This document shows positions 17,048-48,191 of a DNA stretch of 48,220 nt, in pieces. The notes under the pieces were generated by a model. That model was not told where the DNA came from. It made no database searches and was given only the letters and a program-made list of their open reading frames with translations. This DNA comes from a virus. The stretch spans positions 1 through 48,220 of the IMG/VR virus record IMGVR_UViG_3300021964_000119; one strand, written 5' to 3'. Made by a program: the position numbers and the translations under genes. Position 1 is the stretch's first letter; each line of letters starts with the position of its first letter.

Positions 17048-17323
17048 TCAATTAATTTTTGCAATAAATGATGGATAGCCCATCAGCCATAGCACGCTGA
17101 CGTCGTAGAGACCGCTGAGTGTGACAATTTGCACGACAGACGGCTCTGTTTGCCCTTTTTCTATTCGGCAATAGGTGGATTGACCTATGTGAAGCGCTTC
17201 TGCCGCGTCTCGCTGAGATAGGCCATTGTTTAATCTGGCATCTTTAATGCGCGATGCAATAAGCATGCGCCTTTGGTGGTGAGGCAGCTTCATGCCATTG
17301 ACAGTGCTTGCTAAAAATCTCAT
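17048..17323 (-). CDS. XRE-family helix-turn-helix regulator
   Basis: A 91-residue protein with a Cro/CI-type helix-turn-helix: RIKDARLNNGLSQRDAAEAL, then IGQSTYCRIEKGQTEPSVVQ and the supporting helices ending SVLWLMGYPSF. It is co-directional with the endonuclease gene at 17320-17853 and overlaps it by four bases (ATGA). Together they form an antisense two-gene unit inside the plus-strand head operon. The regulator may control expression of the endonuclease rather than a lysis/lysogeny switch, because no integrase or second repressor is seen. Confidence 0.85.
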   Translation of the reverse strand: MRFLASTVNGMKLPHHQRRMLIASRIKDARLNNGLSQRDAAEALHIGQSTYCRIEKGQTEPSVVQIVTLSGLYDVSVLWLMGYPSFIAKIN

Positions 17324-17853
17324 GACATCGCGTGCTTGCTAACTTTCCATCCCTTGATCTGCTTAAGCCTGCCGTTAATCACATCGTAAACATGCGCTCG
17401 GTTTATGTCGTGCTCCCTGCAGAATTCCCGCAGGTTTAAGGTGACATGTATAGACCCGCTGGGCGAAGTGAAGTGGTAAAAGTAGCCGCGAGATCCAGCG
17501 CACAAAGATTTAATCCATTTTTGCTTTCTGTTTGCTTTCTGTTTAATAGTTAGCCTTTCCGTCGTATTTCCTCTCCAAGCAAATTTGGATGTAGTTTGCT
17601 TGGCTTTATTTGCAAAATGTGGATTTATATCCACTTCATAGTATTGATGTAATTTTACTTCCGCCTCAAGAGCCTCTTGTTCTGTATTAAATACTTCAAG
17701 AATTATTTTGCACGTGGGCTTGAATGTTTTATCGGTGTAACTTCCAAAGTAGTTAACATCATTTTCTGGGGGCACGTTTGACGAGCGCTTGCCAATATAG
17801 CCACGCCCCCACTGCTCGTAGGAGTAATAGACATAGTGCCACTTTGCGCCCAT
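17320..17853 (-). CDS. GIY-YIG homing endonuclease
   Basis: A 177-residue free-standing homing endonuclease. The N-terminal GIY-YIG domain shows YVYYSYEQWGRGYIGKR, with the family's YVY and GYIG strands, followed by NYFGSY and the helix around EQEALEAEVKLHQYY, where a catalytic Glu is expected. The C-terminal part NLREFCREHDINRAHVYDVI followed by NGRLKQIKGW is a NUMOD/IENR-type helix-turn-helix DNA-binding repeat. Such enzymes cut intronless or endonuclease-less relatives so that their own gene is copied in. It is antisense to the surrounding head genes and followed by an XRE regulator. Confidence 0.85.
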   Translation of the reverse strand: MGAKWHYVYYSYEQWGRGYIGKRSSNVPPENDVNYFGSYTDKTFKPTCKIILEVFNTEQEALEAEVKLHQYYEVDINPHFANKAKQTTSKFAWRGNTTERLTIKQKANRKQKWIKSLCAGSRGYFYHFTSPSGSIHVTLNLREFCREHDINRAHVYDVINGRLKQIKGWKVSKHAMS

Positions 17854-33940: not shown

Positions 33941-33942
33941 GG

Positions 33943-35031
33943 ATGGCAGTTCTTGGCAACGGCGGAATCATTAGGCTCCAGCGCGAGCCTCCTTCCCCTA
34001 TTGTTGTCCCTGTATCTTCTGCAAGATTTGATATTGACACATTAATAGTTAGAACTCAAGAATTTTGGAGCGGCGATGAAGTGAGGCTGTTTGCTCCAAA
34101 AGGCCTTCCTTTATCTATAGACGCATTACCAGAGGGTGTGGGTTGTTATTTTGGTTCGTTTTGGGACTTAGGGCCAAATAGAACTCACGTAACTGCAGAG
34201 GACGACGATTACTATGTAACAGACGACGACACTGTCTTGTTTTATAACCAAGGCAATCCTGTTACCACTGCAACGTATTTTATTTATAGGGATAGACTTG
34301 ATCGCGTTAGCTTTTATGACACGCGTGTCAAAGCATTGAAAGGACTTCCGGCAGATCGCATTGATTTTAAAAAGCTTAATTTTGGTTTTATTCTTTTATC
34401 TGCGGCAGGTACTGAGGAATACGACAATGCATTGGCTGAGTGTATAGCAGCGTCAGAGCTTGAATATCGTTTTAGTGATGTGAAAGATGAAGTGACGCTA
34501 GAAAGTATTTGTGACTTTCCTCCATTGTTCCTAAGTCCAGTTGCTGGCAGTGGAGACTATAACGATGCGGAACTGGCTCCTAGGCGATGGATTAATGGCT
34601 TTCCGTGGATTATCCAAGGGCTTGTTGAAGAATGGAACATTCAGCTTGATGCCAATGGAATTGATACCACGTCTGTTGGCGATAAATTTGGTGAAAATGT
34701 AAAAAGTATTGTCACTGGTGGTGGCACGTTTGATTTCTATGTTGACAGGCAGAATCAGGATAGAGACAGGAAGGAAGATATTTATGATGCCACATCTTTA
34801 ATGCAGCTTTTGCTGCTAACAGAAAAGGGGTGTAAGGCAAAGGCTCAGTTCTTTATGATTTTTGATCGTGCTGATTCTGTTGAGCGTCCAGAGCTGTTGC
34901 CAGGAGATTTGTACTATGAATGTGACATCTTAATTACGAATAACGCAATTAACACTCGTGCCGATGCATTGATTGTTGGCAGTGCTAGTTTCGTTACCAC
35001 AGGCCCCATTCAGCTTAGAATAGGCACATAA
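33943..35031 (+). CDS. Large tail protein of unknown function
   Basis: A 362-residue protein two bases after the tube-like gene. It has an Asp-rich beta region (TAEDDDYYVTDDDTVLFYNQ), DRLDRVSFYDTRVKALKGLP, and a C-terminal part FDFYVDRQNQDRDRKEDIYD with YYECDILITNNAINTRADAL that resembles a tube-like domain. It may be a long relative of the previous protein with an extra N-terminal domain. Location before the first giant fibre gene suggests a tail or fibre base component. Family not recognised with certainty. Confidence 0.6.
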   Translation: MAVLGNGGIIRLQREPPSPIVVPVSSARFDIDTLIVRTQEFWSGDEVRLFAPKGLPLSIDALPEGVGCYFGSFWDLGPNRTHVTAEDDDYYVTDDDTVLFYNQGNPVTTATYFIYRDRLDRVSFYDTRVKALKGLPADRIDFKKLNFGFILLSAAGTEEYDNALAECIAASELEYRFSDVKDEVTLESICDFPPLFLSPVAGSGDYNDAELAPRRWINGFPWIIQGLVEEWNIQLDANGIDTTSVGDKFGENVKSIVTGGGTFDFYVDRQNQDRDRKEDIYDATSLMQLLLLTEKGCKAKAQFFMIFDRADSVERPELLPGDLYYECDILITNNAINTRADALIVGSASFVTTGPIQLRIGT

Positions 35032-45391: not shown

Positions 45392-45871
45392 ATGGCACTG
45401 GAGAGCACAGAGATTACCAAAGACCTGCTTCACGCCCTCTTTGATTACGAAGATGGCAAGCTTTACTGGAAGGGCAAGCACGAAAAAGAAGCTGGCTCTG
45501 TAGGAAATCGTGGTTATCGCTGTGTCTGCATTAATTATCGCAAGTACATGGCGCACCGCTTGATCTGGATTATGCATGGCAACGATCCAGTGGAAATGCT
45601 TGACCACATTGACGGCGATCAGCTCAATAACAAAATCGAAAACCTGCGCGCTGTAACCAACTCGCAAAACCAACGCAATCAAAAACTACGCAAAGACAGC
45701 ACTTCAGGCATTAAAGGCGTGAGCTGGATTAAAGCTCATAAACGCTGGGCAGGACAAGTCTGGCACAAAGGCAAGCTTTATCGCGCTGGTTACTTTAAGG
45801 ACAAAGATGAGTGCGCTGCCGCCGTCCGTGAATTGCGCGAGTCGCTCCACGGCGAGTTTGCACGCCACTGA
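45392..45871 (+). CDS. HNH endonuclease with AP2 DNA-binding domain
   Basis: A 159-residue homing-type endonuclease. The HNH core is visible as MAHRLIWIMHGNDP, then LDHIDGDQLNNKIENLRAVT and SQNQRNQ, with the His of DHIDGD, the central Asn and later residues of the beta-beta-alpha metal fold. From about residue 106 an AP2-like three-strand domain follows: GIKGVSWIKAHKRWAGQVWH, then YRAGYFKDKDECAAAVRELR. HNH-AP2 enzymes are common free-standing mobile genes in phages. It is placed right after the big fibre gene, with its own inverted repeat upstream and a terminator downstream. Confidence 0.9.
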   Translation: MALESTEITKDLLHALFDYEDGKLYWKGKHEKEAGSVGNRGYRCVCINYRKYMAHRLIWIMHGNDPVEMLDHIDGDQLNNKIENLRAVTNSQNQRNQKLRKDSTSGIKGVSWIKAHKRWAGQVWHKGKLYRAGYFKDKDECAAAVRELRESLHGEFARH

Positions 45872-47777: not shown

Positions 47778-48155
47778 ATGGGGCAAGTAATTAGGGGCGG
47801 CGAACAGTTTGAAACTGCAATTGCTGCTGATTATCGCGGGCAAATTATTCGTCGTGGTATTGATAGTGGAGAAGTGGATGCTTTTGCCAGGAAGCGCGTA
47901 AGTGAGCCATATACGCTTTTTGATAGCACAATGCGTTATGACAAACGTGCTGAAAATTGGAACGAAACCATTGTTGGTTCTGGTGCGTCCGAGCATAATA
48001 TTTATCAAAGTTCAGTGCTAATGAGCACTGTTGCTTCTGGCGATAGCGTAATGAGGCGCACTCGTCGGAGATTTCCCTACCAGCCAGGCAAAGCGCTCAG
48101 AAATGGAGAACCAGTGCTCACGCCGACTGGATGGAAAGCAATTGAAACGCTTTAA
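47778..48155 (+). CDS. Virion-like protein interrupted by an apparent intein start
   Basis: A 125-residue ORF. Residues 1-105 read like the N-terminus of a phage structural protein: MGQVIRGGEQFETAIAADYR, EPYTLFDSTMRYDKRAENWN and SEHNIYQSSVLMSTVASGDS, then RFPYQPGK. From residue 106 the sequence turns into ALRNGEPVLTPTGWKAIETL, a good match to block A of inteins/Hint domains (x-x-x-GD-x-V-x-TP-x-G-x-x-x-I-x-x-L), and stops at once. A remaining intein part and C-extein would be expected outside the window, so this may be the N-part of a split protein. A truncated gene or chance match are alternatives. TACAAT at 47752-47757 may be the -10 box. Confidence 0.7.
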   Translation: MGQVIRGGEQFETAIAADYRGQIIRRGIDSGEVDAFARKRVSEPYTLFDSTMRYDKRAENWNETIVGSGASEHNIYQSSVLMSTVASGDSVMRRTRRRFPYQPGKALRNGEPVLTPTGWKAIETL

Positions 48156-48191
48156 TCATGAGCGCATTACAATGAAAGAAAAAGGCAGTCA

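What the first reader, a model, noticed from the sequence alone, without database searches (positions are those of the whole stretch)
47778..48155. Apparent split-intein N-fragment ending a virion protein
After RFPYQPGK the ORF switches to ALRNGEPVLTPTGWKAIETL and stops. The last 20 residues are a very good match to intein block A. Atypical split inteins have N-parts of about 15-25 residues, and fractured inteins often carry a homing gene between halves. The first residue is Ala instead of Cys or Ser, which is known only for special intein classes.
Basis: partly seen in the sequence, partly recalled or inferred. Interest (0 to 1): 0.75.

Follow-up and report, generated by a model that had tools for sequence, protein, structure and literature searches.

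The report
Intein stub in a cyanophage gene
A virus of cyanobacteria carries the first sixteen to twenty residues of a self-splicing protein element inside a shortened structural gene; it looks like the scar of a failed or deleted insertion rather than half of a working split element.

Summary
Residues 1-105 of the 125-aa ORF are the N-terminus of a cyanophage virion protein (phrog_1645). In 83 of 83 relatives examined, the protein runs on uninterrupted at this point (most about 405 aa). The tail ALRNGEPVLTPTGWKAIETL is genuine intein block A. It matches class 3 inteins, which lack a position-1 nucleophile and sit at P-loop GK|T/S sites. The nearest, in a TerL, shares 16 of 20 residues. The virion gene has a fortuitous GK|S exactly there, and a class 3 intein is present in a helicase-like gene of two relatives.

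The split-intein reading is not shown. The codons IETL plus stop, and the bases after them, align with the native 3' end of the intact gene and the start of the next (LtfC-like) gene, 68/79 identical. No endonuclease follows directly, and no C-intein or C-extein lies in the 48-kb record. Of 123 comparable loci, none stops after block A. Best reading: a class 3 intein entered at GK|S, and host gene plus the rest of the intein was lost through short homology, possibly in one abortive homing event. A working split class 3 intein with its other half in the unseen genome is not excluded (about 14%).

The parts
47778..48155 (+). Whole ORF, 125 aa: truncated virion structural protein with an intein-derived tail
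47778..48092 (+). N-extein: residues 1-105 of the virion protein (phrog_1645), ending in QPGK; under purifying selection against L002 (dN/dS 0.044)
48093..48140 (+). Certain intein-derived part, 16 codons ALRNGEPVLTPTGWKA (block A start, no nucleophile at position 1)
48141..48155 (+). IETL + stop: junction zone; fits both intein block A (IE[ET]L) and the native 3' end of the host gene (GWIETL*)
48156..48220 (+). Intergenic sequence and, from 48191, the start of the next gene (MITPGSHDI..., LtfC-like in relative L030), colinear with relatives that hold the intact gene

Best explanation
It is the N-terminal stub (16-20 codons) of a class 3-type intein at a GK|S site in a cyanophage virion structural gene. 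The rest of the intein and about 295 codons of the host gene have been replaced by a direct join to the gene's last codons. Inferred mechanism: the LAGLIDADG endonuclease of a class 3 intein whose usual target is a P-loop GK|T/S codon pair (as in TerL or the group's RecA-like helicase) cut or invaded the look-alike GGCAAA|TCn of this non-ATPase gene. Either the intein was fully inserted and later deleted, or repair copied only about 60 bases of it and then re-annealed, through short homology around ATTGAA, to the resected 3' end of the gene. The product is a 125-aa truncated protein with no splicing activity of its own. Shown: N-extein identity, block A identity, exact insertion point, native 3' end, conserved next gene. 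Inferred: class of the lost intein, homing, the order of events, loss of function.
For: Tail matches class 3 inteins at GK|T/S: L209 16/20 residues and 42/60 bases, L130 16/20, L096 14/20. Five such inteins share the WCT triplet as invariant W68, C311, T329. Same site in relatives: K at -1 in 40 of 40 and S at +1 in 33 of 40 that a pattern could read, of 83 loci given. 48141-48219 aligns 68/79 with the 3' end of the intact gene, the intergenic DNA and the next gene of L025-L030, E 7e-21. A class 3 intein occurs in the same phage group: G010 and G012, E about 1e-91, in a helicase-like gene at GGTGK|T; the G012 TerL is 98% identical to the window's. No C-part in the record. 0 of 123 comparable loci stop after block A except at contig ends.
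Against: No relative with a full intein at this site was found: 83 of 83 loci are uninterrupted, so insertion in this gene rests on the stub alone. The gene is single-copy and full length in 13 of 13 related records, so losing most of it should be harmful, yet the shortened form was assembled into a 48-kb contig. The junction lies only about 80 bases from the contig end, so a misassembly of the second junction cannot be ruled out.
Confidence: 0.6

Rival explanations
1. A working split class 3 intein with a 20-residue N-part; the C-part (blocks B-G plus the C-extein) is a separate gene in the unseen part of the genome, and the two halves trans-splice the virion protein.
For: The stub ends at the end of block A, close to where natural atypical split inteins break (AceL-TerL 25 aa, GOS-TerL 37 aa: PMC11766414, passages). 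In class 3 chemistry both nucleophiles sit on the C-part, so position 1 may be Ala (PMC10559147, part 1 of 2 read). One natural class 3 split intein is known, with Ala1: AceL NrdHF (PMC7891396). The host gene is single-copy and strongly conserved, so the loss needs rescue.
Against: IETL* and the DNA after it are the gene's native 3' end. No endonuclease follows directly. No second block-A-then-stop gene in viral contigs: one pattern hit, a 24-aa chance frame.
Confidence: 0.14
2. The second junction is a sequencing or assembly artefact: the real gene holds a complete cis-splicing class 3 intein at GK|S followed by the normal C-extein.
For: The junction is about 80 bases from the contig end, and short homology of the kind found in chimeric reads is present. 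The first junction falls exactly at GK|S at the standard distance from block A, so it is probably real. The first 1 kb at the other contig end has deviant composition.
Against: The shared stretch is probably at most about 12-14 bases (inferred; the lost intein's DNA is unknown), shorter than usual assembly k-mers (recalled). The join preserves the gene order of relatives.
Confidence: 0.16
3. Not an intein: a chance C-terminal sequence produced by an internal deletion or a domain swap of the virion gene.
For: The protein ends with the native IETL*. Pfam and NCBIfam do not call an intein in it.
Against: 16/20 identity with a TerL intein at the same GK| position, model E 2e-6, 0 of 100,000 random peptides as good. 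The curated intein C-terminal model also misses the known class 3 inteins of L209, so its silence means little.
Confidence: 0.03

Closest known systems
Class 3 inteins at P-loop GK|T/S sites (phage TerL, helicases; e.g. L209, L096, Klebsiella phage K64-1 TerL, Mycobacterium phage Cane17 gp179)
   Same: Block A sequence, non-nucleophilic residue at position 1, insertion directly after GK and before a Ser/Thr codon
   Different: Here only the first 16-20 residues remain, and the host is a virion structural protein whose GKS is not a Walker A motif. An L209 portal-like gene also carries such an intein, so a structural host is not unique.
AceL NrdHF, the first natural split class 3 intein (PMC7891396)
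   Same: Class 3 type, Ala at position 1, phage-like metagenomic contig
   Different: AceL NrdHF is broken at the endonuclease site (98 + 48 aa) with a GIY-YIG gene between the halves and a proven partner; here the break follows block A, no endonuclease gene follows directly and no partner was found
Atypical TerL split inteins (AceL-TerL, GOS-TerL; PMC11766414)
   Same: Very short N-part ending soon after block A
   Different: Those are class 1 with Cys/Ser1 and a known C-part
Arthrobacter FB24 Arth_1007 decayed class 3 intein (PMC3196547)
   Same: Remnant class 3 intein of phage origin in a truncated host gene
   Different: That one is nearly full length with lost catalytic residues; this is a short N-terminal stub joined to the host gene's end

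Membership tests
Class 3 intein | No Cys/Ser/Thr nucleophile at position 1 | tested here: met
   Ala at position 1; 64 of the 124 comparable start sites, the window included, have Ala
Class 3 intein | Block A motif at the right spacing from the splice site | tested here: met
Class 3 intein | WCT triplet (Trp block B, Cys block F, Thr block G) and terminal Asn | tested here: not met
   Blocks B-G are absent from the 48-kb record. So it is filed as a fragment derived from a class 3-type intein, not as a class 3 intein.
Class 3 intein | Ser/Thr/Cys as first C-extein residue | tested here: inconclusive
   The C-extein is missing here; intact relatives have Ser in 33 of 40 readable loci, Gly in 7
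Split intein | Separate gene with the complementary C-intein and C-extein | tested here: inconclusive
   Absent from the record. The genome is incomplete: group records reach 70-107 kb, S-CBS4 is 69 kb.
Split intein | Trans-splicing activity | not testable with these tools
   needs expression of both halves; no C-half known
Fractured gene with homing endonuclease between halves | Endonuclease gene directly after the N-half | tested here: not met
   An LtfC-like gene starts at 48191. The HNH gene in the window lies upstream, at 45392-45871.

The most novel reading that the evidence does not exclude
A natural split class 3 intein with an N-part of only about 20 residues and Ala at position 1, formed when a microhomology rearrangement moved the rest of an intein-bearing virion gene elsewhere; all chemistry would sit on the unseen C-part, and the virion protein would be rebuilt by trans-splicing.
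Probability: 0.14. Interest if true: 0.75.

Novelty: new variant of a known kind. Interest (0 to 1): 0.42.

Why it matters
As a relic it shows a class 3 intein reaching a look-alike GK|S in a gene that is not an ATPase, with about 0.9 kb of host gene lost: a snapshot of how off-site insertion can damage a phage gene. It also places class 3 inteins in this S-CBS4-like cyanophage group. If a partner gene exists, it would be a split class 3 intein with a very short N-part, useful for peptide labelling and a direct view of how split inteins arise.

Tried and rejected
Curated intein models gave nothing in the window. They are weak here: TIGR01443 also misses both class 3 inteins of L209, and TIGR01445 sees only one of them, below its cut-off. 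I therefore built profiles from class 3 inteins.

Chance was tested and rejected. The full 20-position score there is partly circular, because the intein set was picked by a pattern that fixes several positions; the 14 free positions are the fair test. L096 and L097 in alignment A1 were found with the window tail as part of the query, so E 2e-6 is somewhat flattered.

Best C-profile hit in the window: 33941-34042, E 0.07, overlapping another gene in a different frame; taken as chance. The C-junction pattern hit L099 and five genome contigs; all were unrelated or out-of-frame matches. The block-A-then-stop pattern hit only L226, a 24-aa chance frame.

I considered using the contig-end distance (80 bases after the junction, 128 from the intein start) to infer an assembly branch; too speculative to use.

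Full report
What is there. The ORF 47778-48155 encodes 125 aa. Residues 29-109 match phrog_1645, virion structural protein. The search for related loci matched 195 stretches, of which 156 encode relatives; the best 80 were kept and all match residues 1 to 107 or 108, at 62-97% identity. Their intact proteins are mostly 403-408 aa. Together with three more loci (L093-L095), 83 of 83 give a single tblastn alignment running across the site without an insertion. In known phages the family is found in 137 of 50,697 records, mostly Synechococcus phages, at under 60% identity.

The tail. After QPGK the window reads ALRNGEPVLTPTGWKAIETL. A 64-residue query from the window brought three loci (L096-L098) that match only this tail. 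They are inteins inserted between GK and T of a SNF2 helicase and of a putative packaging ATPase (the second name is my reading of the sequence). A tblastn of the tail in phages likewise pointed to inteins of K64-1 TerL and a mycobacteriophage helicase, but only at E 1 or worse. With L096-L098 this makes 123 intein starts. Of these, 97 show HLW within the first 110 residues. Of the 114 long enough to test, 94 end THN|[TSC] and 90 also have the block F Cys; 9 of the 123 are cut by a contig end before 150 aa, and none stops within 60 aa otherwise. The best matches to the window tail are L209 and L130 (16/20) and L096 (14/20); the rest have 5-12. L209 is a terminase with a LAGLIDADG intein. In a five-intein alignment W68, C311 and T329 are invariant, which is the class 3 WCT triplet (the definition was read in passages of PMC3196547 and PMC5050341). 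A GK|T P-loop position is described there as a classic intein site. The virion gene is not a P-loop ATPase as far as the families show, but has GKS at the right place.

The end. From 48141 the DNA is that of the native gene end: ATTGAAACGCTTTAA, intergenic DNA, then the next gene. It is 68/79 identical to L025-L030, E 7e-21. Intact close relatives end GWIETL*. In L030 the next gene is LtfC-like (PF23926, phrog_3304); in the window it begins MITPGSHDI at 48191. So the gene order is kept, and what is missing is the intein beyond block A and about 295 host codons. The nearest intein, L209, has ATT GAA GAG CTC where the window has ATT GAA ACG CTT, so at least ATTGAA could be shared between the intein and the gene end.

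Partner search. No C-extein and no C-intein were found in the record with TIGR models, own profiles (the controls L082 and L083, not in the training set, scored 35 and 53 bits) or alignment A1. A pattern for HN|S-L-L-x-x-Q-S-F found nothing real in viral contigs or genome contigs.

The phage. Its TerL is 77% identical to Synechococcus phage S-CBS4 (69 kb) and 95-98% identical to five of six related records tested, of 73-107 kb. The full-length virion gene is present as one strong copy in 13 of 13 related records; two have an extra weak match. Two of these 13 (G010, G012) carry a class 3 intein in a helicase-like gene at GGTGK|T. It matches the window tail poorly, so it is not the direct donor, but it shows such inteins circulate in this group. 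Codons 1-105 against L002 give dN/dS 0.044, so the truncation is recent or the fragment is still of use.

Mechanism. I favour off-site insertion or abortive homing at the look-alike GK|S, followed or accompanied by a microhomology deletion. Insertion plus later deletion and partial copying with template switch give the same product, and I cannot tell them apart. The precise first junction argues that intein entry itself is real. The second junction is about 80 bases from the contig end and could be an artefact.

Known context. The natural split class 3 intein AceL NrdHF (98 + 48 aa, Ala1) was found when none of 1701 class 3 inteins in nr was split (PMC7891396: abstract, first part and section 7 read). 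An artificial class 3 split also works (PMC10559147, part 1 of 2 read). Natural atypical splits have N-parts of 25-37 aa (PMC11766414, passages). A decayed class 3 intein is described in PMC3196547 (passages). In the searches, whose listings I read, I saw no report of an intein in this virion family.

Noticed in passing
G010:C1:17987-19021 and G012:C1:58893-59927 (L234, L235): A 345-aa class 3 intein (AQSLDSKILTPDGW...VTHN|T) in a helicase-like gene at GGTGK|T of two records of the same phage group; not detected in the other 11 related records.
   Followed up: partly
L209:2484-5978 (G014:C1:4269-5216): A portal-like protein with a class 3 intein directly after a terminase that carries another one: two class 3 inteins in neighbouring packaging genes.
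   Followed up: no
window 45392-45871 (+): Free-standing HNH endonuclease (PF13392), about 2 kb upstream of the truncated gene.
   Followed up: no
window 17320-17853 (-): 177-aa ORF with a GIY-YIG-like start (YVYYSYEQWGRGYIGKRSS); motif recalled, no Pfam match.
   Followed up: no
window 1-1000: GC 66% against 42-53% elsewhere, strong negative skews and short tandem repeats; the first 1.9 kb has no match in phages. Possibly a chimeric contig end.
   Followed up: partly
window 3962-5407 (+): Ribonucleotide reductase large-subunit ORF of only 481 aa, which seems short for this family (size recalled).
   Followed up: no
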